Source: a virus. Taken from it: 33,292 nucleotides of DNA. A program made the position numbers and the translations under genes. Under the pieces are notes generated by a model. It made no database searches and was not told the origin of the DNA. It saw nothing but the letters and a program-made list of their open reading frames with translations. Shown in pieces: positions 354-33,292 of the stretch (positions within the stretch are counted from its first letter, which is position 1; each line of letters opens with the position of its first letter). Location: IMG/VR virus record IMGVR_UViG_3300050821_012817, positions 1 through 33,292 of that record; one strand, 5' to 3'.

Positions 354-2699
354 TTAGCTCGTTGCCTGCTTCCGCCTCTTGATCATGTCGTTGATTTGAG
401 CTTCGCGGGTAGCCTTCTTAAAGCGCTCCTCGGCAACGGCCGCTTCCTCTGCTGCCTTACGTGCCTTGGTCTTGGCGCGGGCAGTCAGCTCTGCTTGCTT
501 CTCCATAGCCAACCGCTCAGCAGGTGTCACGACGTGTAGCTCCGGGTCGTGATAGAAGCCGCCGCGGAAGCCCACCGGCGCTGAGCCGGCGCTGCGGAGG
601 TACTTGAAGCAGTCCTGCACCGTCCCGGTGTCAGGCATACCGACTTCCTGACGCAGCTCCTGCATGTGGCGGCTGATGTCGTCGCTACGACTCCGCTTAA
701 CACCGCACATGTCGTGAAGCTGACGACCGGCCACTGATAGGAGCTTGCGCACCTGGTCGTTGCCCTCCGATAGTCCGTAGGCGTGACTGATCGTCTTGTC
801 CAGTGCAGCAAACATGCCCAGGTCGATGGACTGCCTTTCCGGCTGAGGGACCTTGTGGACGAACTCGCCAGTCTCAGGGTCATACTCAGGCTCACCGTGG
901 TTGGCGACCGTTTGACCGTGGGCTGATCCGGTGGCAGCAGCCTTCGGACCGTCCAGAGTGATGCCGCGCTGGCCATCGAAGGACGTGCCGTGCGGGTCCG
1001 GGGAGGGACCGACGCCGCCAAAGCCCGGGTTGTCATTGCCCACCTTGCCGCCACCGATGATGTTCGGCGCCTGCGGGCCGTGGTCGTAGCCACCGTCCGT
1101 GCGGTATGGCGTCTGATGTGGATCTCCCGCTGGCGCGGTTGGCACCCAGCCCGAGGTGGGCGAGCTGTACTGCGGCCCGCCGCCTACTCCACCGTCGTGA
1201 GGATCGGTATTGGAGGTGTCAGGATTCCACGACCAGTTATCGTTAGCACCCACGGGGCCAGTGACGATGTTAGAACCCGCCACTCCACTCACCAGTGATC
1301 CAGTGCCCGACATGTAGGGCGTTTCGTGTGGGTCGTAACCTTCCATGCCGCGCTCGCTCTCTGAATAAGGCGTTTCGTGAGGATCGCCCGGAGCTCCGGG
1401 GCTACTAAACGATGGATTGTAACTTCCAGGTGCCGTACCGGCGCCAATGATGTTCGGCGCGGCCGTACCACCACCGCCGCCACTCCCAACGCCATCAACA
1501 GTCGTATAGGGCGTCTGGTGTGGGTCGCCTTCAGGAGTAGGGGAAGTCCAGCCGGGGGAGTCCGGCGTAAAGCTGCCGGTGCTTCCCTCGGCACTGAAAT
1601 CCTGGTCATGCGGATCTTCGCAGGTCAGGTCAGGGCTAAACTCCGACACGCCACTGCCGGGTGAGCCGCCACCAATGATGTTGGGCGGCGTAGGGCCAAA
1701 GCTCGGCTTGCCATCTCCCGTTTGGTAGGACTCATCATGTGGGTCTTGGGGTGTCCCACCAGGATTCCACGTTGCCACGGTGCCGCCAGGTGTCATCGCA
1801 GCGCTCCTTTCGTCGTCGCTCGCGTCGACGCCAAACTCCTTAAGGGCGCTCTTGATACGTCCTTTGATCGAGTTGACTTGCTCAGCGCTGTAACCCTTTT
1901 GGTTCTTGGGCATGCTGATGTAGGACCAAGCCGCCTTCGCGTGGTCCTTAGTGTCGATGGGGTAGCGCTTCTTCCCGTCCTTCTGGTAACCGGGGTCGGC
2001 ATACTTGACATTTCCATAAGGCTGCTTGCCTGAGTCGTCGCCCTTGGCGGCGCGAACAGCGGTCAGAGCTTGCTGGGCACGCTGGATCTGCTTGGTGTCG
2101 AGCCGGCTGCGCAATTCCACCAGGTCGCTGTTCGACAGCTGCGCCAAGGTGTCCACGGCTTCGGCGGAGAGGATGGCGCGCGTGCCCGGGTTCATCCCGT
2201 AGTTGACGACGCTGACATCACCCTTTTGCAGACTGAGCTCATTGATGGTGCGGTTGACGTAGTTGCTATCCCACGCCTGGTCCTTGACGCGGAAAGCGAA
2301 GCTCATCTCGTCCATGTCACCACGGCGCATCTTGGGGATGAGTCGCTGCACGTCGGGGTCCGTGGGGTCCAACGTGGCCCATACGCGCAGGCCGTGCTGG
2401 TCCCGGCTAAGCTTCAACGTCCCGCTAGTGGTGCGAGCTAGCGGCGTCCCCTCATGGTTAATGAGAAGCTGCACATCAGGCTTGCTGGCCAGCGTCTTGT
2501 CGAACGCGTTGTAGTCGAGCTTCTCAACCCAGCCACCAGCGGAGGGACCGCCGTGTACGTCGTAGGGCTCGAACGTGGACGCGTAGCCCTCAAGGATGAC
2601 TGCGCCCGTTTTGTTGTCTTCGCGGAATTCCAGTCGACTGGCACCCCGACGCTCCTCACGAACGTCAAGCAGCTTTTGCCGACCACGGTGGTCCGTCAT
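354..2699 (-). CDS. HK97-family prohead protease fused to a repeat linker and a C-terminal scaffold-like domain
   Basis: This 781-residue protein starts at an ATG with GGAGGAACC just upstream. Residues about 30-180 are the U35-type prohead protease: GYASTFEPYDVHGG, then INHEGTPLAR with candidate catalytic His82, and DEMSFAF with candidate Ser133. Residues about 231-292 (KYADPGYQKDGKKRYPIDT, then SAEQVNSIKGRIKSA) resemble DUF6582. Residues about 305-610 are a low-complexity linker with repeated DPHxTPY and APNIIGGG motifs. Residues about 640-781 are helical and end in a Lys/Ala/Glu-rich coiled coil, as scaffold domains do. It would cleave head proteins during maturation and probably itself. 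It is far longer than ordinary proteases of the family (about 200 residues). The adjacent portal gene supports the call. Confidence 0.88.
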   Translation of the reverse strand: MTDHRGRQKLLDVREERRGASRLEFREDNKTGAVILEGYASTFEPYDVHGGPSAGGWVEKLDYNAFDKTLASKPDVQLLINHEGTPLARTTSGTLKLSRDQHGLRVWATLDPTDPDVQRLIPKMRRGDMDEMSFAFRVKDQAWDSNYVNRTINELSLQKGDVSVVNYGMNPGTRAILSAEAVDTLAQLSNSDLVELRSRLDTKQIQRAQQALTAVRAAKGDDSGKQPYGNVKYADPGYQKDGKKRYPIDTKDHAKAAWSYISMPKNQKGYSAEQVNSIKGRIKSALKEFGVDASDDERSAAMTPGGTVATWNPGGTPQDPHDESYQTGDGKPSFGPTPPNIIGGGSPGSGVSEFSPDLTCEDPHDQDFSAEGSTGSFTPDSPGWTSPTPEGDPHQTPYTTVDGVGSGGGGGTAAPNIIGAGTAPGSYNPSFSSPGAPGDPHETPYSESERGMEGYDPHETPYMSGTGSLVSGVAGSNIVTGPVGANDNWSWNPDTSNTDPHDGGVGGGPQYSSPTSGWVPTAPAGDPHQTPYRTDGGYDHGPQAPNIIGGGKVGNDNPGFGGVGPSPDPHGTSFDGQRGITLDGPKAAATGSAHGQTVANHGEPEYDPETGEFVHKVPQPERQSIDLGMFAALDKTISHAYGLSEGNDQVRKLLSVAGRQLHDMCGVKRSRSDDISRHMQELRQEVGMPDTGTVQDCFKYLRSAGSAPVGFRGGFYHDPELHVVTPAERLAMEKQAELTARAKTKARKAAEEAAVAEERFKKATREAQINDMIKRRKQATS
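970..1760 (-). repeat. in-frame DPHxTPY / APNIIGGG repeat tract in the protease gene
   Basis: Between the DUF6582-like and C-terminal domains the reading frame repeats a heptad-like motif: DPHDESY, DPHDQDF, DPHQTPY, DPHETPY (twice), DPHDGGV, DPHQTPY and DPHGTSF, with xPNIIGGG or xPNIIGAG between several copies. At DNA level the reverse complement shows recurring blocks such as gggtcgc/gtgtgggtc and gatgatgttcggcg. The unit length varies from about 30 to 50 codons, so this is a degenerate protein repeat and not a DNA microsatellite. Confidence 0.85.
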
Positions 2700-2717
2700 G
2701 GTTCCTCCTTTGGAGTA

Positions 2718-4058
2718 TCAGGGTCTCATTTGTTGTCGGCCAGCTGCGATAGGCTTGCCGTTGTTCTTTTCAGGTGTCCCATTATTTTCTCCCCCACCCA
2801 CGGGCGGCATTTGGAAACCATTGGGTGATCCACCCGGTTGTGGAGATGGTCCCGTAGCGCCGCCAGTAGCTCCACCGAGGGAAGTCGGCGTACCCAATGG
2901 CACGTAGTTGGCGGGCTGAAGTAGCACGTCACCGCCGTCAATCGGGTCAAGTTCCTCATCGGCACGGACCTCATTGGGCGTCAGCCACGTGCCCTGGATT
3001 CCGTTCTTGTAGGCGTTGTACTTGCCCTCAATGTCACCGCGCATGAGCGCCTTAAAGTCGAACCGGACAAACTGACCCCTCGGGAGACAGGAAGAAATTA
3101 CTGACTCCATACAGCTCGTCCACGGCCTGAAGGTATAGGCGATAGCACCCAGGTTGATCTGCTGGATACCGGTGCCCCATGCGGTGGTGTGCGTCGTGTC
3201 GCCAATAAGCACTGGTGGGACGCCGAACAGCAGGCAGATCTCCTGGCGCTGGAATTCTCGAGTCTCGAGGAACTGCGACTCCTCCGGCGTAATGGACAGG
3301 TTCTGCCACTTAAATCCACCGGTCAACATTGCAGGAAGGCGTCGGCCACCGTGGCTTTGAATCCAGTTTTTCTGAACGCGCTGGATGGCTTCCTCGTCCA
3401 ACGGCTGCTCAGTGGACAGGACGCCGCTGGGGTTGGCCGACTCCTTGAAGTAGCGGTAGCCGTACTCCTCAGCAGAAAGACCCATGCCGATAGCAATAGC
3501 GGCTTGCTTAATCGGGGATAGTCCCCAGGGCTCACCCGGCATGGTGAAGCGGCGCATGTGCACCATGTCCTCGCGCGGGACGGGCTCACCCATAATGCGG
3601 TAGATCGGGTCGAACCACAGCAGGATGTCTGGCCGGCGCTCCAAAAACACAATGTCCGGGTGCAGCGGCAGTAATGCGGTGGGATAGCCCATGTTGTCGC
3701 GAGAGGTGATGTAGTGATAACTGTTGCCGCGCAACGCCATTGAGGCGATACACATCCACTTCCACTGGAAGAGGTCGAATCCTGGGTACGGCTGAGAGAT
3801 CAGCTTGGGCTGCGGCTTGATCTCTTTGGGCACACCCTTGGCGTCACGCCGGTATGCCTTCCACGGCAGGCTGGCAATCACATCTGCTAGCAGGCGCACG
3901 CAGGCGAAGACCGTCATGTGGGACATCGACTTGTGGACGCCCACCACGTCGTCAAGGACGCCGATCTGCGGTGGTGGGACAAAGGCGGAGCTCATCAGGT
4001 CGCGATGCTCAACCTCGCCACCACGCGGCGGGGAGACGAGGCGACTGAGGATGCTCAC
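2718..4058 (-). CDS. phage portal protein, HK97 type
   Basis: This 446-residue protein starts at a GTG that overlaps the upstream stop (GTGA). It has the portal pattern throughout: an early SMSHMTVFACVRLLADVIASLP segment (split here at VRL; the family has 'V-acv-llA---A-lP'), then RRFTMPGEPWGLSPI, the SAEEYGYRYFKESANPSGV stretch typical of the clip/stem region, and later FGVPPVLIGDTTHTTAWGTG. The last 50 residues are Gly/Pro/Asn-rich (GGATGGATGPSPQPGGSPNG) and likely disordered. A dodecamer of this protein forms the DNA-entry vertex and docks the terminase. It lies between terminase and prohead protease, as expected in HK97-like head modules. Confidence 0.93.
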   Translation of the reverse strand: MSILSRLVSPPRGGEVEHRDLMSSAFVPPPQIGVLDDVVGVHKSMSHMTVFACVRLLADVIASLPWKAYRRDAKGVPKEIKPQPKLISQPYPGFDLFQWKWMCIASMALRGNSYHYITSRDNMGYPTALLPLHPDIVFLERRPDILLWFDPIYRIMGEPVPREDMVHMRRFTMPGEPWGLSPIKQAAIAIGMGLSAEEYGYRYFKESANPSGVLSTEQPLDEEAIQRVQKNWIQSHGGRRLPAMLTGGFKWQNLSITPEESQFLETREFQRQEICLLFGVPPVLIGDTTHTTAWGTGIQQINLGAIAYTFRPWTSCMESVISSCLPRGQFVRFDFKALMRGDIEGKYNAYKNGIQGTWLTPNEVRADEELDPIDGGDVLLQPANYVPLGTPTSLGGATGGATGPSPQPGGSPNGFQMPPVGGGENNGTPEKNNGKPIAAGRQQMRP

Positions 4059-4468
4059 TCATCCCTCCGTTGCGGAATCAAGGTGACGCCCGATAACGCC
4101 AAGCCCATAAGAATTAAGCAGAACCCTAAAACAATAAGCCCTAACCATGGTCTTATCTCCCAACAGCCCACCGAAATCAAGGAGATTCCTATCAGCTCCA
4201 GGATGGTGGACTGAACTTCACGCCAGTCGCGCGGCGTCTTCTGCGGCTTAGGCGCCGCGGGGAGGCGTTGCGCCGGAGGTACTGGCAGCGGTATTGGGGG
4301 CGGCAGCGGGACCGACTCCTCATCGTCGGGGTCTTCATCGCCATCGTCCTCATGAAGGGCGGCGGCAGCAAGATTGACAAGACGTTGACGCGCAGTGCTC
4401 TCCTTCTCGCGGGCATCGGCATAGAGCCGTCCACCGCCGCCGATTTGCGTCACGTTGTCGTCTGCCAC
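4055..4468 (-). CDS. small membrane protein between terminase and portal
   Basis: About 137 residues. The chosen start is GTG at 4466-4468 because GAGAGGA lies five to seven bases upstream; a longer GTG start at 4495 would overlap the terminase end further. The N-terminal half is acidic then proline-rich (EDDGDEDPDDEES, then PLPPPIPLPVPPAQ). The C-terminal third has two adjacent hydrophobic stretches (ILELIGISLISVGCW and LGLIVLGFCLILMGLALSG), forming a probable helical hairpin. It overlaps both neighbours by a few bases, so it is translated with the head operon. No family is recognised; the position does not by itself show a role in packaging. Confidence 0.7.
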   Translation of the reverse strand: MADDNVTQIGGGGRLYADAREKESTARQRLVNLAAAALHEDDGDEDPDDEESVPLPPPIPLPVPPAQRLPAAPKPQKTPRDWREVQSTILELIGISLISVGCWEIRPWLGLIVLGFCLILMGLALSGVTLIPQRRDE

Positions 4469-6096
4469 AAGGGTCCTCTCGCTTCTTCTTCCCACTGCTG
4501 GATGATGTCGTCGGTCGGCCAGTCATGGATCTCCGGTGGTGGCGTCCCTCGATGGTGTTCCAGCCATACCGCGGCTGCACATGCCACAAGGGGCGAGACA
4601 TCAACAGGTGAGTTCCTCCTATCAAACACCCATCCGTCCCCGACGTGACGAGCCACACCGCTGGCTGCTGCTCGGTCTAGGACGGGCGCGGGGCGGTGGA
4701 AGATCCGATGCTCGGTGATCTGGTCATACAGCAGGTGGCACCCGGCAGAGATCTCGGTGCCGGGGCCCCACTCCACTACCTTGACGCCCGCAGCTTTGAG
4801 GTCCTCAATCATGCCGCTGACCGGCGCGCTGCTCTTCTGGATACACACGCCCTCAAACCGCTTCTTGCGCTCCGGGTCGGAGAGCCATGGGATGATCCAG
4901 TCCGTACCTCGAGCGGCGTTAATAACCTCAATATGTAGGTAGCCGTCAGTACGCCGAGCGGCGATGGCCACGTAGCTACGCGACCGCTCGTAGTTGACAT
5001 CCAGTGCCGCGTACACCTTGCTATCCGGCGCTCTAGCGCTCCCGCTGTCGTGTGTCTCGGCCCAGTGCTCCGCCGGCATGATGCCGGGCTGCATGGCATC
5101 CACCCATTGGCATAGGTGCTCAGTCTGGAAACCTGGCATGTTGCGGTACTCCATGGCCTCAAGGAATCCCTTGAGATCCTCCAAGGTGAAGTCGTTAAGC
5201 AGGCCCATGGAGGGGTTGGCCATGTACCAGAACCGCGGGTCGCGCGGGTCTTCCTCCATCGGGACACTCCACTCAAAGAATCCTGTAGTGGTGTGTTCTG
5301 TTTCCCCGGTGGTGGCGCGGCGCCAGGCACCGTCACGCTGTGCACGCAAGACCTCACTGCGGAGGTCGCCTGCGTTACTGGTGCACACCACTTGGGAATA
5401 GCGACGAACGGTGGTGGTCGGGACGATAGCGTTCCATGCATCCCAGGTGGTGTGCTCACGGAGCTCATCCAACATAGCGATGTCTACTGACAGCGATCGA
5501 GCGCCTTTACGGGAGGCGGTGGCGGCGCGCCAGTACCGGCGATTGGTGAGGATTGCGCGGTGCTTACCGTTGGTGACGCGGTGGTTAATCAGCTCGCGGC
5601 ATAGCAGCTCATTGTCGCGGATCTCGTCCACGACCTCCTTTAGCATGTTCTCGGCGTAGTCCAAGTTCTGCGCGGCGATAACCGCCAGGCGTGCTCCAGG
5701 GCATTCCTTGTCCGCGCGGCCATACCGGGAAAGGAATAGTCGCCAGAGCCCAATTCCCTTGAGCCATCGCGACTTACCGTTCTGCCGCGCCACCAGGATA
5801 AGAAGGACTTTGTAGCGAAATCCCGCGCCGTCATTGCCCTTCTCGAGGGCGTGGACATACAGCCATTTTTGCCAGGGCATCAGTGCCCAGCCGCAGACCA
5901 TTTCCAGAAACTCTATGCAGTCAAAGCCCCAGGACGTATCCGGATTGAGTCCGCACCCGCAATAGCACTCAACGGATTCGCCGTCCTCATAAACGACCGG
6001 GCCCAAGCAATTCTTTTTCAGCGGCGGCGTGTAGACGCGAGGGGTTGTACTGCCGATACGGCAGATGTCATCTTCTACAAGCGGACTGGCCATCAT
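4450..6096 (-). CDS. terminase large subunit
   Basis: 548 residues from ATG 6094-6096, which overlaps the previous stop (GAATGA) and follows CGAGGA; an alternative ATG is three bases on. The packaging ATPase signature is clear: a degenerate Walker A in LLILVARQNGKSRW (residues about 98-111, K108), Walker B in VDIAMLDELREH (D210, E211) and the coupling motif region VVCTSNAG. The C-terminal nuclease domain begins at KVYAALDVNYERS with candidate metal ligand D366. A CYCGCG motif near residue 45 could bind a metal. The protein translocates DNA into the prohead through the portal and cuts it. The length is normal for this family. Confidence 0.93.
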   Translation of the reverse strand: MMASPLVEDDICRIGSTTPRVYTPPLKKNCLGPVVYEDGESVECYCGCGLNPDTSWGFDCIEFLEMVCGWALMPWQKWLYVHALEKGNDGAGFRYKVLLILVARQNGKSRWLKGIGLWRLFLSRYGRADKECPGARLAVIAAQNLDYAENMLKEVVDEIRDNELLCRELINHRVTNGKHRAILTNRRYWRAATASRKGARSLSVDIAMLDELREHTTWDAWNAIVPTTTVRRYSQVVCTSNAGDLRSEVLRAQRDGAWRRATTGETEHTTTGFFEWSVPMEEDPRDPRFWYMANPSMGLLNDFTLEDLKGFLEAMEYRNMPGFQTEHLCQWVDAMQPGIMPAEHWAETHDSGSARAPDSKVYAALDVNYERSRSYVAIAARRTDGYLHIEVINAARGTDWIIPWLSDPERKKRFEGVCIQKSSAPVSGMIEDLKAAGVKVVEWGPGTEISAGCHLLYDQITEHRIFHRPAPVLDRAAASGVARHVGDGWVFDRRNSPVDVSPLVACAAAVWLEHHRGTPPPEIHDWPTDDIIQQWEEEARGPLWQTTT

Positions 6097-6320
6097 TCCT
6101 CGGGAAGTCGTGCGTAGGCCAGTGGCTGGCACTGCGGACAAACACCATGCTCAGTTTCTCCACCACACTTGTAGCACGAAAGGGGGCCACCCGCGCGGGG
6201 GTCGTCAACAGTGAACTCGATCATTACGTCCCGCACAACCTCTCCGATCATGTTCTTCACGGGTTGTAGGAGGGCCAACCCAAAGGCCCCCATTGCATTC
6301 CGTAAGAGGTCTAACACCAC
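6093..6320 (-). CDS. small zinc-knuckle protein before the large terminase
   Basis: About 75 residues from GTG 6318-6320, preceded by TTGAGGAC; the next GTG (6317) is also possible. A much longer reading frame begins at 6560 but lies over the upstream gene in another frame, so it was trimmed. The N-terminal part is an amphipathic helix (LDLLRNAMGAFGLALLQ) followed by MIGEVVRDVMIEF. The C-terminus has CYKCGGETEHGVCPQC, two CxxC pairs fit for one zinc ion. It overlaps the 26-residue gene upstream by ten bases and the terminase start downstream by four. The function is unknown. Confidence 0.65.
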   Translation of the reverse strand: MVLDLLRNAMGAFGLALLQPVKNMIGEVVRDVMIEFTVDDPRAGGPLSCYKCGGETEHGVCPQCQPLAYARLPEE

Positions 6321-6950: not shown

Positions 6951-6978
6951 GTGAACAGCCAGCGCGCTGGCATATACT
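6951..6978 (+). promoter_or_regulatory. rightward palindrome-spacer promoter
   Basis: -35 GTGAAC (6951-6956), a 16-bp spacer containing the perfect palindrome GCCAGCGCGCTGGC (6958-6971), and -10 TATACT (6973-6978). The same layout recurs at 8902, 14767, 16561 and 21012 (plus strand) and at 31966 (minus strand). A repressor bound to the palindrome would lie between the polymerase contacts. Confidence 0.8.
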
Positions 6979-16560: not shown

Positions 16561-16588
16561 CCGAATAGCCAGCGCGCTGGCGTAGGCT
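16561..16588 (+). promoter_or_regulatory. rightward palindrome-spacer promoter, weak -10
   Basis: -35 CCGAAT (16561-16566), a 16-bp spacer with GCCAGCGCGCTGGC (16568-16581), and -10 TAGGCT (16583-16588), which is a poor match. The palindrome and leader are fully conserved. Confidence 0.65.
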
Positions 16589-29881: not shown

Positions 29882-30235
29882 TCACCATTGCTTCCTCGTC
29901 AGGTAGCTCTCGACCCACTGCTCCATGTTGCGCTTAGCGCCATCCTTGCTGGTGGCGTAGAGCGAGATATGTGGGAACTGCGGCGACCAGCCAACCCAGC
30001 AGAGCTTGTCATGGTAGATGCCCGGTGAGACCCGAACGTCCAGCCAGCTCATGTTCCTCGTCCTAAACGGGACGCCATCGCAGTCAAAGTCGCACAGGCC
30101 ATACCCACACTCACCACACAGCCATAAGGGGGAGTCATAGGACGCGAACTTGACGTTGTCGCTCCAGTCGCTGACGCTCCTGTTGCGCGCATGGCAGCAC
30201 TGGCACCTATGTAGCCACCACAGATTCAGATCCAT
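29882..30235 (-). CDS. 117-residue zinc-binding protein, unknown
   Basis: The start ATG 30233-30235 overlaps the previous gene. HRCQCCHARNRSVSDW near the start and LWLCGECGYGLCDFDCDGVP give up to eight zinc-ligand cysteines, followed by SWLDVRVSPGIYHDKLCWVG and a C-terminal helix. It may be a treble-clef or double-ribbon protein. No family was recognised. Confidence 0.65.
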   Translation of the reverse strand: MDLNLWWLHRCQCCHARNRSVSDWSDNVKFASYDSPLWLCGECGYGLCDFDCDGVPFRTRNMSWLDVRVSPGIYHDKLCWVGWSPQFPHISLYATSKDGAKRNMEQWVESYLTRKQW

Positions 30236-30453
30236 CGCCGCGCAAACTTCTCAAAACGTGGGCTGGCCTGGCATAACTGCTCCACCATCTCCATTATCCG
30301 TGGTGGCACGGCGATGTCTGCATGGTGGAGTACCGCCAGGGATTCAATAACCGCCAGGTCATACTCCCCATATGTCCGGTAGTGATCAGCGGGCCCGCGA
30401 TTGTTGGAGAAGTAGGCGAGTAGGTCATCACTGACTTCCTTGTATGTGGTCAC
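30226..30453 (-). CDS. 75-residue protein, unknown
   Basis: The start overlaps the upstream gene (ATGA). MTTYKEVSDDLLAYFSNNRG, then RTYGEYDLAVIESLAVLHHA and PRIMEMVEQLCQASPRFEKF. It is all-helical and compact. No motif was recognised. Confidence 0.62.
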   Translation of the reverse strand: MTTYKEVSDDLLAYFSNNRGPADHYRTYGEYDLAVIESLAVLHHADIAVPPRIMEMVEQLCQASPRFEKFARRWI

Positions 30454-30734
30454 TCCACTGGCCCCCGGGGCGCATCGTCCACCGGTATGCCCTTTTCCTT
30501 CGCGTCCTTGATGCCCCGCTGGCGAAACTTATCCATCTCGGCGTAGCGGGCTTCCATCACCGGTCCAGGTGCCAGCGGGTTATAGACCAAATCCCACCCA
30601 TGAAATTGCAGTACATGGGCTACGGCCTGGGCGTATTCAGCAAAGTCGGTACGGCTATCCACTTGGAAGGAGTAGCCCCGGGCTACCGACCGCATAGCCA
30701 TCGACAGGGCCTCGTCGGGGTTGTCAAACCTCAT
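30450..30734 (-). CDS. 94-residue protein, unknown
   Basis: ATG 30732-30734 overlaps the previous stop (AATGA); an earlier start (30764) was rejected for that reason. MRFDNPDEALSMAMRSVARG, then YSFQVDSRTDFAEYAQAVAH and HGWDLVYNPLAPGPVMEARY. The N-terminal helix and central acidic-aromatic part are well formed, and the C-terminus is charged. No family was recognised. Confidence 0.62.
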   Translation of the reverse strand: MRFDNPDEALSMAMRSVARGYSFQVDSRTDFAEYAQAVAHVLQFHGWDLVYNPLAPGPVMEARYAEMDKFRQRGIKDAKEKGIPVDDAPRGPVE

Positions 30735-30997
30735 TTCTTCCCCGCTCGCTGTAGTCCAGGGCATGCGCAGTCGTGGCGAATCGTTCCATCCTCCGGGTGC
30801 TCAAAGTCCAGCGCGTGGCACACACCTGCGTCGTCGTGCTCATTAGCGGGGTGGTCGCACGCCATGCAGTGTTCCTCAGACGCATCCAATATCCGCAGCA
30901 GCATCTGCTCGGCTCCAGGCGTCATGTCACCGTGGCGCACGCAGTCCTTAGCGAACGCCGTCAGGCGAATGCGTAGGTCACGCATCTCGTGCTTCAT
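30731..30997 (-). CDS. 88-residue zinc-binding protein
   Basis: ATG 30995-30997 overlaps the previous stop and follows GGAGAAAG. MKHEMRDLRIRLTAFAKDCV, then helix AEQMLLRILDASEEHCMACD, and HPANEHDDAGVCHALDFEHP ending DCACPGLQRAGKK. The Cys/His set (CMACDHP...C-H...H-CACP) fits one or two zinc ions, as in the neighbouring 90-residue gene. Confidence 0.65.
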   Translation of the reverse strand: MKHEMRDLRIRLTAFAKDCVRHGDMTPGAEQMLLRILDASEEHCMACDHPANEHDDAGVCHALDFEHPEDGTIRHDCACPGLQRAGKK

Positions 30998-31269
30998 CAG
31001 TCTTTCTCCACTCCACATCCGCAAAAGTCACCCTGGCCCATCGCGTGGGAGCAAATCAGCGGGCCATTGTGGTACCCCGCTACGGGCTCAGGGAAGCGTG
31101 ACCGGTCATGGTGTTCTTCATTCCAGTGGCCGCACTTGTTGCAGCGGCCCTTGGCGTGGGTCTTCGCATGACGTGTGGTAAAGGCGTTGAGGTTCTCATC
31201 ATGCAACCAAAAGTGCTCACCGCAGTCATTGCAGCGGATCTGGACGACGGTGTACGTGGGCTCCGTCAT
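30997..31269 (-). CDS. 90-residue zinc-binding protein
   Basis: ATG 31267-31269 overlaps the previous gene. It has RCNDCGEHFWLHDENLNAF, then KGRCNKCGHWNEEHHDRSRF and ICSHAMGQGDFCGCGVEKD. CNDC, a His-rich turn and CNKCGHWNEEHH suggest two zinc ribbons. 'CNKCGHWNEEHHD' resembles the 'C--CGH---EHH-' motif of the 82-residue protein at 12346. Confidence 0.67.
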   Translation of the reverse strand: MTEPTYTVVQIRCNDCGEHFWLHDENLNAFTTRHAKTHAKGRCNKCGHWNEEHHDRSRFPEPVAGYHNGPLICSHAMGQGDFCGCGVEKD

Positions 31270-31460
31270 ACCAAGTGCAGTCCGTTTTCGTCTGCTGAGC
31301 CATAACGGGTTTCTATCAACCGTCTTACTCCATCAGACGCGATGACGGCGCCCTTGATAAACCCTTTCGACCAGAACCGCTGATTCTCGCCAGAGTCCAC
31401 GTCGCAGTGCAGCTTCATCTCCTGGCCGTCATCCAACTCGGCCGTCACGGTAACTCTCAT
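31266..31460 (-). CDS. 64-residue beta-rich protein, unknown
   Basis: ATG 31458-31460 overlaps the stop of the 155-residue gene. MRVTVTAELDDGQEMKLHCD, then SGENQRFWSKGFIKGAVIAS and DGVRRLIETRYGSADENGLH. Alternating hydrophobic residues suggest a small beta barrel. Part of it resembles the end of the 118-residue protein at 23572. Confidence 0.62.
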   Translation of the reverse strand: MRVTVTAELDDGQEMKLHCDVDSGENQRFWSKGFIKGAVIASDGVRRLIETRYGSADENGLHLV

Positions 31461-31924
31461 ACGCAGACCACTCCTCGCTCTCGCAATTCGTCTGTTGCCT
31501 TCCAGCGGTGGCTGTTCTGCTCCGACAAGTTGCGTACCAGCCCGCGGTTGCGGAGGTATTGCAGGCTAGAGCTGATTTCCAGAATGGGGTAGTCCAACGC
31601 GCTCGATAACGTCCGGGCGCTGACACTCTTTTTCCGGCTGGCCAGGTACTTGGCGATGCGGAAGTGACGGTGCTGGTGCCGCGTGGGTGGCAGCTTGGCC
31701 GGGCCTGCTTCTTCCCAGTCCTCTTGCTCTGCCAGGTAGTCCCGGGGCTCGTCGTCCACTTCTTCGTCACCGTCTAGTCCAAATGGCGGGGCGTAGGATG
31801 TTGACGTTGTTTCTCGGGGCTCCAGTCCCTTGGCGCTGTAGAGCGACGCTTCCAGGGCGTCCAAAAATTGACGGGCGCGTGCAATACTTCCGGGCTCGTC
31901 ACTAACTTTCAAGGTGATCTCCAC
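31457..31924 (-). CDS. 155-residue protein with winged-helix-like C-terminal domain
   Basis: GTG 31922-31924 is the start: GAGGAGG lies just upstream and the longer frame would begin inside the promoter at 31966. The N-terminal part (EITLKVSDEPGSIARARQFL, then ALEASLYSAKGLE) is followed by an acidic linker and, from about residue 85, HRHFRIAKYLASRKKSVSAR and TLSSALDYPILEISSSLQYL ending RNRGLVRNLSEQNSHRWKAT: a winged-helix arrangement. It is the first gene behind a palindrome-spacer promoter and may be its regulator (inference). Confidence 0.7.
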   Translation of the reverse strand: MEITLKVSDEPGSIARARQFLDALEASLYSAKGLEPRETTSTSYAPPFGLDGDEEVDDEPRDYLAEQEDWEEAGPAKLPPTRHQHRHFRIAKYLASRKKSVSARTLSSALDYPILEISSSLQYLRNRGLVRNLSEQNSHRWKATDELRERGVVCV

Positions 31925-31965
31925 CTTGCCTCCTCTGTCTTCATGCCATAGGTGGCCTCTCTTTA

Positions 31966-31993
31966 AGTATACGCCAGCGCGCTGGCTACTCGC
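31966..31993 (-). promoter_or_regulatory. leftward palindrome-spacer promoter
   Basis: Leftward -35 GCGAGT (31988-31993), a 16-base spacer with GCCAGCGCGCTGGC (31973-31986), and -10 TATACT (31966-31971). It drives the 31924-29294 operon. The leader has a shorter hairpin, GCCA-ccta-TGGC. The flank CGCACTGCTGGTGGCGAGTA resembles the flank of the copy at 18-31. Confidence 0.75.
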
Positions 31994-32080
31994 CACCAGC
32001 AGTGCGGACGTTAATTCTCGTGACCAGGGCTTTTCTAGTTAGTTGCTCTATGCTTCTGTATCGGGGGGACAAGAAAAGTC

Positions 32081-32100
32081 AATGTTTCACGTGAAACATT
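32081..32100. promoter_or_regulatory. perfect parS centromere site
   Basis: AATGTTTCACGTGAAACATT is a perfect 20-bp palindrome whose central 16 bases TGTTTCACGTGAAACA equal the bacterial chromosomal parS consensus recognised by ParB. No parA or parB gene lies in the window. It is intergenic, about 90 bases from the leftward promoter at 31966. Confidence 0.85.
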
Positions 32101-32143
32101 CGGGTCATTATTCTGGTCCAGTGCTGGTCACAGAGCTATTGGT

Positions 32144-32157
32144 GCCAGCGTGCTGGC
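32144..32157. promoter_or_regulatory. isolated operator-like palindrome
   Basis: GCCAGCGTGCTGGC matches the repeated palindrome except one central base. No -10 or -35 is placed as in the other copies, so it may be a stand-alone binding site; a weaker half-copy, CCAGTGCTGG, lies at 32118-32127. Confidence 0.45.
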
Positions 32158-32282
32158 TCCCATTGCGCCCGAGCGCAGACTCCTATCACTATCTGGGAAC
32201 CGGGCTCAGAATGTTGGGCCAAAGATTGCGGGGGTAGGGAGAACCGGCTCCGCCTGCCCGGCGCCGAGGCGCCCGGCACTTT

Positions 32283-32304
32283 GCCGGCCCCCCCGGGGGC
32301 CGGC
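32283..32304. repeat. inverted repeat 1, GC only
   Basis: GCCGGCCCCC (32283-32292) and GGGGGCCGGC (32295-32304), spacer CC. First of three perfect inverted repeats in 120 bases. Confidence 0.7.
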
Positions 32305-32315
32305 GCGCGCGCCAA

Positions 32316-32342
32316 AACCCGCGCCGCGTAGCGGCGCGGGTT
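32316..32342. repeat. inverted repeat 2
   Basis: AACCCGCGCCGC (32316-32327) and GCGGCGCGGGTT (32331-32342), loop GTA; perfect 12-bp arms. Confidence 0.75.
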
Positions 32343-32360
32343 GCGCGCGGGTTGTGTTGC

Positions 32361-32400
32361 GCCGCAAGGGTTTTGGCGCTTGCGCCAAAACCCTTGCGGC
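32361..32400. repeat. inverted repeat 3, 19-bp perfect arms
   Basis: Arms at 32361-32379 and 32382-32400 with a two-base spacer (TT), each containing GGGTTTTGGCGC or its complement. It lies eight bases past the stop of the leftward gene at 32409 and may terminate it, or extrude as a cruciform. Confidence 0.8.
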
Positions 32401-32408
32401 AGTTGGCG

Positions 32409-32738
32409 TTACGCGGTGGCCACGGCGGCCGCGTCAGCGGCCGCCGCTGCCGCGTACCACGCGTGGTGGTAGGCCTTTGCCGCGTAGTACACGGCCACGT
32501 CATCCTTGCCGGTACCGACCGTGACGTTGACGCCGCTAGCGTCCACCGCGTAAGCGGTCCACTTGGCAGCGGCAGTCCGACCGTCGGCGCGCAACCTAAA
32601 CGCTACGGTACCGTCGGCCAACAGACCGTCGGCGGCTTTACCCTTGGTTGACTTAGTACCAAGCTTGCCATTGGCCGGTACCCATTGCAGACGCGGCGCA
32701 TTGCTTGGCTTGCTTGCTGGCTTACGTGTGGTGGTCAT
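32409..32738 (-). CDS. 109-residue Ala/Lys-rich protein, unknown
   Basis: ATG 32736-32738 follows AAGGGGAC. The N-terminus is basic (MTTTRKPASKPSNAPRLQWV), the middle beta-like (GTVAFRLRADGRTAAAKWTA, then YAVDASGVNVTVGTGKDDVA), and the C-terminus is a run of alanines (AYHHAWYAAAAAADAAAVAT). The basic start and Ala-rich helix recall small nucleoid-type proteins, but no family was recognised. It stands alone between structured regions. Confidence 0.62.
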   Translation of the reverse strand: MTTTRKPASKPSNAPRLQWVPANGKLGTKSTKGKAADGLLADGTVAFRLRADGRTAAAKWTAYAVDASGVNVTVGTGKDDVAVYYAAKAYHHAWYAAAAAADAAAVATA

Positions 32739-33292
32739 TTTGTCCCCTTGCGATAAATTGTGTGTACTGCCTTACGTCAGTAACAACGTGGTGGCATGTC
32801 CAGTTATTTCCGAAAATCCCCCAATGTGTCCAGCGTCACATTTGCGCGGCAGTGTGGCGCGCGTCACAATTGCCGGCTAGTTGCATAGGCTAACTAACTG
32901 CCGGCGTGGTGGACGCTTAGCTTGGCTAGCGTTTTGGCCGGCAAGAGCGCGCCGGCACACACTCCGCGGCTGCTACGAATGGCGCAAGAAAGCGCCGGCC
33001 CCGTTCGCAATGCGGAAAGCTTTTGGCGGGGAAGGCGCCGGCACAGCCGGAGGGGGGAGTCCCGGGGAAGGCCTTCGCGCGCGGAGTCGGCGAAGCGCCG
33101 GCACGGTCGAAGGGGTTCAGCACCCGGCGAAGCCAGGGCCGGCGCCGGCACGGCGGGTTCGCGATGGGAATAGGAGCCGGCAGCACAGGGAAGGGGCCGG
33201 GCTCGAATAGAGGCCAGGCACTGGGCAAGGGCCGGGCCAGAGGGGATGGCTGTGCCAGCGCCGAGTGGCCGTGGTGGAGTCCCCACAGAGTG
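32739..33292. other. non-coding, structure-rich right end
   Basis: No convincing gene. It holds two near-identical 13-mers, GCGTCACATTTGC (32833-32845) and GCGTCACAATTGC (32861-32873), 28 bases apart, and then from about 32930 a series of GCCGGC-centred units (such as GCGCCGGCAC) in a purine-rich plus strand. Long frames here are composition by-products. It may carry a promoter for the 32409 gene; no clear -10 was seen. Confidence 0.5.
32930..33200 (+). repeat. degenerate GCGCCGGCAC repeat tract
   Basis: The core GCCGGC recurs (for example in gcgcgccggcac, aagcgccggccc, aggcgccggcac, aagcgccggcac, ggcgccggcac, gagccggcag) at intervals of about 20-60 bases with purine-rich spacers containing GGGGAAGG-type runs. 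The units are too diverged for a simple tandem repeat. Confidence 0.55.

What the first reader, a model, noticed from the sequence alone, without database searches (positions are those of the whole stretch)
32081..32100. Perfect chromosomal-type parS site in a phage genome
The 16-base core TGTTTCACGTGAAACA equals the consensus bound by bacterial ParB; a perfect 20-bp palindrome here by chance is very unlikely. With no ParB gene in view, the phage may use the host ParB for partition as an extrachromosomal prophage, to place its DNA near the pole, or to draw in SMC. It could also be cis-regulatory.
Basis: partly seen in the sequence, partly recalled or inferred. Interest (0 to 1): 0.85.

Follow-up and report, generated by a model that had tools for sequence, protein, structure and literature searches.

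The report
Host-type parS site in actinophage DNA
A virus of actinobacteria carries, in a non-coding gap, a perfect copy of the DNA tag that bacteria use to sort their own chromosomes (parS); many other phages without a partition gene carry it too, and in one phage group it is clearly kept by selection, so these phages probably recruit a host protein, although nobody has yet shown what for.

Summary
AATGTTTCACGTGAAACATT (32081-32100) is the longest perfect palindrome in the window and the only parS-like site even at 3 mismatches; exact chance expectation is 2.6e-6. It lies in an AT-rich non-coding gap between a terminator-like hairpin and a leftward promoter. The window is a 33-kb fragment of an Omegavirus-like (cluster J) actinophage; the largest close relatives are 97-114 kb. 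It has no ParB, ParA or tyrosine integrase, but two thirds of the genome may be missing. parS is no accident in phages: 286 of 50,697 phage records carry the exact 16-mer against 0 for two control palindromes; IMG/VR gives at least 120 contigs against 1 and 5. Of 46 longer parS-bearing viral contigs only 4 have a ParB domain and none a host oriC gene. In Arthrobacter korraviruses the 14-bp core is invariant in 10 of 10 while flanks drift to 57-59% identity and the outer pair changes symmetrically: selection. Most likely host ParB loads here; what follows (polar/SMC handling, regulation, titration) is unproven. Extrachromosomal-prophage partition is not favoured: nine sampled named parS phages lack ParA and tyrosine integrase. 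A precedent exists (phi29/Spo0J, from memory): new member of a known kind.

The parts
32081..32100 (.). 20-bp perfect palindrome containing the 16-bp parS core TGTTTCACGTGAAACA (32083-32098)
   Evidence: Direct read; only match at up to 3 mismatches in the window
31925..32360 (.). Non-coding gap that houses the parS; the stretch 32010-32140 around it is 44% GC against about 60% for the window
   Evidence: ORF list and composition; no similar DNA in phages for 30000-33292; in plasmids only one short weak hit that starts at about 32253, beyond the parS
31457..31924 (-). First gene downstream on the left; GTG start at 31924 behind the Shine-Dalgarno-like AGAGGAGG; C-terminal winged-helix-like region, so possibly a DNA-binding protein
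   Evidence: weak TrmB match E=0.014, weak phrog_1123 match
31966..31986 (-). Leftward promoter-like element: palindrome GCCAGCGCGCTGGC (31973-31986) followed by -10-like hexamer TATACT (31966-31971)
   Evidence: Same palindrome fills the spacer of TGAAN-N16-TATAMT promoter-like sites at 6958, 8909, 14774 and 21019, and of a weaker one at 16568
32144..32157 (.). Second, one-mismatch copy of that palindrome on the other side of the parS, without a good -10
32361..32400 (-). 19-bp perfect hairpin just downstream of the leftward gene 32409-32738, probably a transcription terminator; marks the right edge of the gap
   Evidence: the repeat finder I3; single-strand fold of the gap z = -7.1
32409..32738 (-). 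Leftward gene of 109 aa on the right side of the gap, function unknown
4450..6141 (-). Terminase large subunit; shows that the record is a tailed phage
   Evidence: phrog_9 E=5.8e-70; 77% identical to the 113.9-kb relative G064
2718..4058 (-). Portal protein, nearest named relatives are Omegavirus (cluster J) mycobacteriophages at 48%
   Evidence: phrog_12 E=3.3e-99

Best explanation
The 20-bp palindrome is a functional parS site carried by an Omegavirus-like phage of an actinobacterium, and it is read by the host's own chromosomal ParB. ParB binds the site, closes into a CTP-dependent clamp and slides out over the neighbouring phage DNA. The phage genome then carries the same protein tag as the host origin region and is handled by the same partners (ParA, SMC-ScpAB, pole proteins) during infection. 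I think the main benefit is placing or compacting the phage DNA during the lytic cycle, not inheritance of a plasmid prophage. Shown here: the site, its non-random occurrence in phages, its frequent occurrence without ParB, its conservation in one phage group, and its location in a non-coding gap. Inferred: binding by host ParB, clamp spreading, and the benefit.
For: Exact 16/16 parS match, chance 2.6e-6 in the window. ParB_N in only 4 of 46 longer parS-bearing viral contigs and 1 of 9 named parS phages; no GidB oriC marker in any of 47 records and a terminase of one family alone in 20 of 47, so they are not simply host chromosome. Viral parS sites are fully intergenic in 33% of cases against 5.8% for random positions. 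In korraviruses the 14-bp core is invariant in 10 of 10 genomes; in the diverged ones the flanks are only 57-59% identical and the outer T.A pair becomes C.G on both sides. The closest relative, G064, has that same CGTTTCACGTGAAACG form. Genomes with related portals, mostly actinobacterial, carry exact parS in 9 of 16 cases, against 0 for the reversed control. In Corynebacterium glutamicum a single parS suffices for ParB loading and spreading up to 16 kb to each side, and SMC is recruited even to ectopic sites (PMC7083940).
Against: No binding data. The record is a fragment, so a phage ParB elsewhere cannot be excluded. Named Omegavirus phages lack any parS within 3 mismatches, and 45 of 48 relatives, many of them fragments, lack one within 2; the site is therefore not conserved in this lineage, and the G064 and G085 sites are not at the syntenic position. 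Only one site is seen here. The host is not identified beyond Actinomycetota.
Confidence: 0.5

Rival explanations
1. The site is a transcriptional control element. Host ParB, or a phage DNA-binding protein with the same specificity, sits on it and silences or times the leftward promoter at about 31966-31986.
For: The parS lies about 95-115 bp upstream of a promoter-like element and between two copies of a palindrome that fills the spacer of several phage promoters. In korraviruses the parS sits just ahead of a gene start. In contig G031, 24 parS-type sites recur; those inspected lie mostly between a stop codon and the next ribosome-binding site (own reading). ParB represses genes next to intergenic parS sites in Pseudomonas aeruginosa (PMC7022226), and a parS overlaps a promoter in Mycobacterium bovis BCG (PMC2346475).
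Against: The distance to the -10 box is too large for simple occlusion. Many phage parS sites are inside genes. Exact identity with the host consensus in unrelated phages is hard to explain by a phage-specific regulator.
Confidence: 0.2
2. Partition of an extrachromosomal prophage by the host ParABS system.
For: A single chromosomal parS stabilises an unstable plasmid in Bacillus subtilis in a Soj/Spo0J-dependent way (PMC2346475). No tyrosine integrase in the window or in the large relatives G064 and G085. A repeated operator in promoter spacers could belong to an immunity repressor.
Against: Nine named parS phages have neither ParA nor tyrosine integrase and include groups known as lytic, such as Listeria P100, Bacillus BSP11 and Lactobacillus Bacchae (lifestyle from general knowledge). 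No repressor or RepA was identified in the window. Named cluster J relatives carry an integrase. Known plasmid-like mycobacterial prophages use their own parABS with 8-bp direct repeats (PMC7157519).
Confidence: 0.13
3. Decoy: after replication the many phage copies titrate ParB (and SMC) away from the host origin, which blocks host segregation or frees these proteins for the phage.
For: Explains presence in fast lytic phages without partition genes. G031 with 24 parS-type sites looks like a strong sink.
Against: One site per genome is a weak sink until late infection; a phage that kills its host gains little from blocking segregation.
Confidence: 0.1
4. A chance or neutral 16-mer, or a fragment of host DNA picked up by recombination.
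For: Not conserved in most relatives.
Against: Chance 2.6e-6 in the window, at least 24-fold enrichment over a matched palindrome in viral DNA, 20-bp perfect symmetry, non-coding location, no host-like flanks found.
Confidence: 0.05

Closest known systems
Bacterial chromosomal parS site (ParB/Spo0J binding site)
   Same: Identical 16-bp consensus and perfect palindrome; two such exact sites occur upstream of parB in mycobacteria (PMC2346475).
   Different: Lies in a phage genome, single, away from any parAB operon or oriC gene.
Bacillus phage phi29 and its use of host Spo0J (Meijer et al. 2005, EMBO J; recalled from memory, not held in the library)
   Same: Phage without its own ParB whose DNA is handled by host ParB; phi29-type Bacillus phages here also show exact parS sites.
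   Different: phi29 uses it to enter spores of a firmicute; this phage infects an actinobacterium, is much larger and belongs to another group.
RedRock-type parABS mycobacteriophages
   Same: Actinophages with a centromere-like site.
   Different: They encode ParA and ParB, and RedRock parS is built of 8-bp direct repeats (PMC7157519); none of this is seen here.
Korravirus Arthrobacter phages (Joann, Nubia, Urla and others)
   Same: Exact or C.G-closed parS in a non-coding gap; Joann tested to have no ParB and no ParA.
   Different: Unrelated genome type; the site lies between DNA polymerase I and the PurA-like gene, and is conserved.
Omegavirus (cluster J) mycobacteriophages
   Same: Nearest named relatives by portal (48%).
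   Different: No parS within 3 mismatches, tyrosine integrase present in Porcelain and WXIN.

Membership tests
Chromosomal-type parS site | Match to TGTTNCACGTGAAACA | tested here: met
   16 of 16 at 32083-32098; consensus from PMC7022226 and PMC2346475
Chromosomal-type parS site | Inverted-repeat symmetry | tested here: met
   Perfect over 20 bp
Chromosomal-type parS site | Bound by a chromosomal ParB | not testable with these tools
   Needs binding assay or ChIP-seq
Phage-encoded ParABS (RedRock type) | parA and parB genes on the phage | tested here: inconclusive
   None in the window, but the record is a fragment; G064 (113.9 kb) has no ParA and only a ParB_N protein without an HTH domain match
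Phage-encoded ParABS (RedRock type) | parS made of 8-bp direct repeats | tested here: not met
   No such repeat array in 31900-32450; definition from PMC7157519
Phages that exploit host ParB (phi29 kind) | Host-type parS on phage DNA | tested here: met
Phages that exploit host ParB (phi29 kind) | No phage ParB able to bind it | tested here: inconclusive
   None in the window; rest of genome unseen
Phages that exploit host ParB (phi29 kind) | Likely hosts have the same parS on their chromosome | tested here: inconclusive
   9 of 16 genomes carrying related portals have exact sites, reversed control 0; the host itself is unknown
Phages that exploit host ParB (phi29 kind) | Phage phenotype depends on host ParB | not testable with these tools
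   Needs infection of parB mutants
Omegavirus (cluster J) | Portal and terminase kinship | tested here: met
   Portal 48% to Porcelain and Courthouse
Omegavirus (cluster J) | Tyrosine integrase | tested here: inconclusive
   Absent in window and in G064 and G085, present in Porcelain and WXIN; window is partial
Omegavirus (cluster J) | About 110-kb genome | not testable with these tools
   Only 33 kb held

The most novel reading that the evidence does not exclude
Carrying a host-type parS without ParB is a general, repeatedly evolved strategy of lytic phages across phyla (actinophages, Listeria, Lactobacillus, Bacillus, microviruses) to put host ParB and SMC on their genomes. This window is one example and contig G031, with 24 parS-type sites, an extreme one.
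Probability: 0.45. Interest if true: 0.8.

Novelty: new member of a known kind. Interest (0 to 1): 0.58.

Why it matters
If host ParB loads on phage genomes, the bacterial chromosome-sorting machinery is a routine part of infection for many lytic phages, and ParB foci could mark natural phage DNA in live cells without any engineering. It would also give a simple test of what ParB and SMC do on a foreign replicon: delete one 16-bp site in a culturable Arthrobacter or Gordonia phage and compare.

Tried and rejected
Search for relatives of the adjacent 31457-31996 protein: no confirmed hit in IMG/VR. DNA similarity of 30000-33292 to phages and of 31930-32360 to plasmids: nothing useful. Rfam: no match. 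No sigma-70 consensus promoter by the simple scan; promoter-like elements were found only through the shared palindrome. G066's TGTTTCACATGAAACC lies inside a glycosyltransferase homologue and is treated as chance. The idea that parS-bearing IMG/VR contigs are host oriC fragments was tested with GidB and rejected (0 of 47). ParB_N proteins of G064 and G085 were considered as possible phage ParBs and set aside: 185-203 aa, no HTH domain match, no ParA. Literature search for parS carried by phages for use with host ParB found nothing in the held library; the phi29 paper is not held.

Full report
Observation. The window reads AATGTTTCACGTGAAACATT at 32081-32100. It is its own reverse complement and the longest perfect palindrome in the window. 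The 16-bp core occurs once, and no second site appears even at 3 mismatches. Expected exact occurrences are 2.6e-6. The core equals the published chromosomal consensus TGTTNCACGTGAAACA (PMC7022226, PMC2346475).

What the record is. G000 is a linear IMG/VR virus record of 33,292 bases. It has a terminase, a portal protein and a head maturation protease at 354-6141 on the minus strand. The portal is closest, among named phages, to Omegavirus (cluster J) mycobacteriophages at 48%. IMG/VR holds many nearer relatives; the nearest, G064, is 113.9 kb with terminase 77% and portal 72% identical. The window is therefore probably about a third of a phage genome (inference). Cellular genomes with related portals are mostly Actinomycetota, so the host is most likely an actinobacterium. 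No ParB_N, ParA or tyrosine integrase is in the window.

Local anatomy. The site lies in a non-coding gap of about 430 bp. To its right a 19-bp perfect hairpin (32361-32400) follows the leftward gene 32409-32738 and looks like its terminator. To its left is a promoter-like element on the minus strand: palindrome GCCAGCGCGCTGGC, then TATACT, then a GTG start at 31924 behind AGAGGAGG. The same palindrome fills the 16-bp spacer of other promoter-like sites in the window, so it is probably the operator of a phage regulator. The parS neighbourhood (32010-32140) is 44% GC against about 60% overall. This is where a cis-acting DNA site is expected.

Is parS more than chance in phages? Yes. In 50,697 annotated phage records the exact 16-mer occurs in 286, against none for the reversed palindrome and none for a palindrome with the same composition and the same CACGTG centre. 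The named records are mainly Listeria, Microbacterium, Arthrobacter, Gordonia, Lactobacillus, Bacillus and Microviridae. The counts are not corrected for kinship between records. Sites are fully intergenic in 33% of cases against 5.8% for random positions, using a crude gene caller (binomial p = 1.4e-23, sites treated as independent).

Are these phages ParB-less? Mostly. ParB_N was found in 4 of 46 parS-bearing viral contigs of 18 kb or more, one of them below the cut-off, and in 1 of 9 named parS phages. That one, Teamocil, is annotated as a ParB-like nuclease domain protein. None of 47 records (46 parS contigs plus the window) carries GidB, the gene next to many chromosomal parS sites, and 20 of 47 have a terminase of the phrog_2 family alone, so host contamination is not the general explanation. 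None of the nine named phages has ParA or a tyrosine integrase; serine integrases were not tested.

Is it selected? In Arthrobacter korraviruses the site lies between DNA polymerase I and the PurA-like gene. Ten genomes all keep GTTTCACGTGAAAC. In the four diverged genomes that could be scored position by position the intergenic flanks are 57-59% identical to Joann, yet the core is unchanged and the outer T.A pair has become C.G on both sides. In Gordonia phages two sites per genome sit mostly in longer palindromes whose arms differ while the core is constant. This is what a protein-binding site under selection looks like.

In the window's own lineage the picture is weaker. Porcelain, Courthouse, WXIN and prophiGD43A-5 have no site within 3 mismatches. 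Of 48 IMG/VR relatives only G064 (CGTTTCACGTGAAACG, the korravirus form, overlapping the stop codon of a gene) and G085 (TGTTTCACGTGGAACA, inside a gene) have credible sites. Both lie upstream of the terminase, as here, but not at syntenic positions. So the site has been gained, or lost, more than once.

Mechanism. Host ParB binding is the common step of the leading readings. In the actinobacterium Corynebacterium glutamicum a single parS is enough for ParB loading and spreading up to 16 kb to each side, and SMC is recruited also to ectopic sites (PMC7083940), so one site on a phage genome could work. What the phage gains is inferred. I favour handling of phage DNA during lytic growth, with regulation of neighbouring genes as the main rival, and prophage partition and titration as less likely. 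No binding or infection data exist for this phage.

Comparison with what is known. Use of host Spo0J by phage phi29 for spore entrapment is the closest precedent; I recall it from memory and the paper is not held. Plasmid-like mycobacterial prophages use their own parABS and a different parS (PMC7157519). A 2025 survey of the ParB-CTPase fold covers phage-encoded proteins (PMC12704722). I found no paper on parS sites in ParB-less phages in this library, which misses most subscription journals.

Verdict. Real, probably functional, and an example of a wider pattern that deserves a direct test; not a new kind of system. Interest 0.58.

Noticed in passing
G031 / L087 (IMGVR_UViG_3300037518_000322, 116.7 kb), 91.7-95.7 and 105.8-112.4 kb: 24 parS-type sites (1 perfect, 23 TGTTTCACGTGGAACA) in two clusters; of the 12 read in L087 most appear to lie between a stop codon and the next ribosome-binding site of leftward genes. 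The contig has a terminase match (with in-frame stops) and a PNKP-type kinase, no ParB_N and no GidB.
   Followed up: partly
window 6958, 8909, 14774, 16568, 21019, 31973 (also 14720, 32144, 18 with one mismatch): A 14-bp palindrome GCCAGCGCGCTGGC fills the 16-bp spacer between -35- and -10-like hexamers at several promoters: a probable phage regulon operator, not found in relatives except once in coding-like context.
   Followed up: partly
Gordonia phages MrWormie, Hello, GalacticEye, Damp, Orchid (L286-L290): Two exact parS sites per genome; most sit at the centre of longer palindromes (up to about 36 bp) with different arms but constant core.
   Followed up: partly
Microviridae, gokushoviruses, bajarodino viruses and Spiroplasma phage 4 in the phage collection: Small single-stranded-DNA phages carry exact parS sites, some of them several per 5-6 kb genome.
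   Followed up: no
Vibrio phage phi 3 (KP280063), 2934-2949: Exact parS inside the terminal repeat of a phage genome.
   Followed up: no
window 9024-29297: Cargo-rich region: UDP-glucose dehydrogenase, two TylF-type methyltransferases, several glycosyltransferases, a PspA/IM30 protein and a Band-7 protein.
   Followed up: no
G064 24.1 kb and G085 77.9-78.7 kb (L282, L283): Short ParB_N-only proteins of 185-203 aa without HTH match, in tandem in G085; function unknown.
   Followed up: partly
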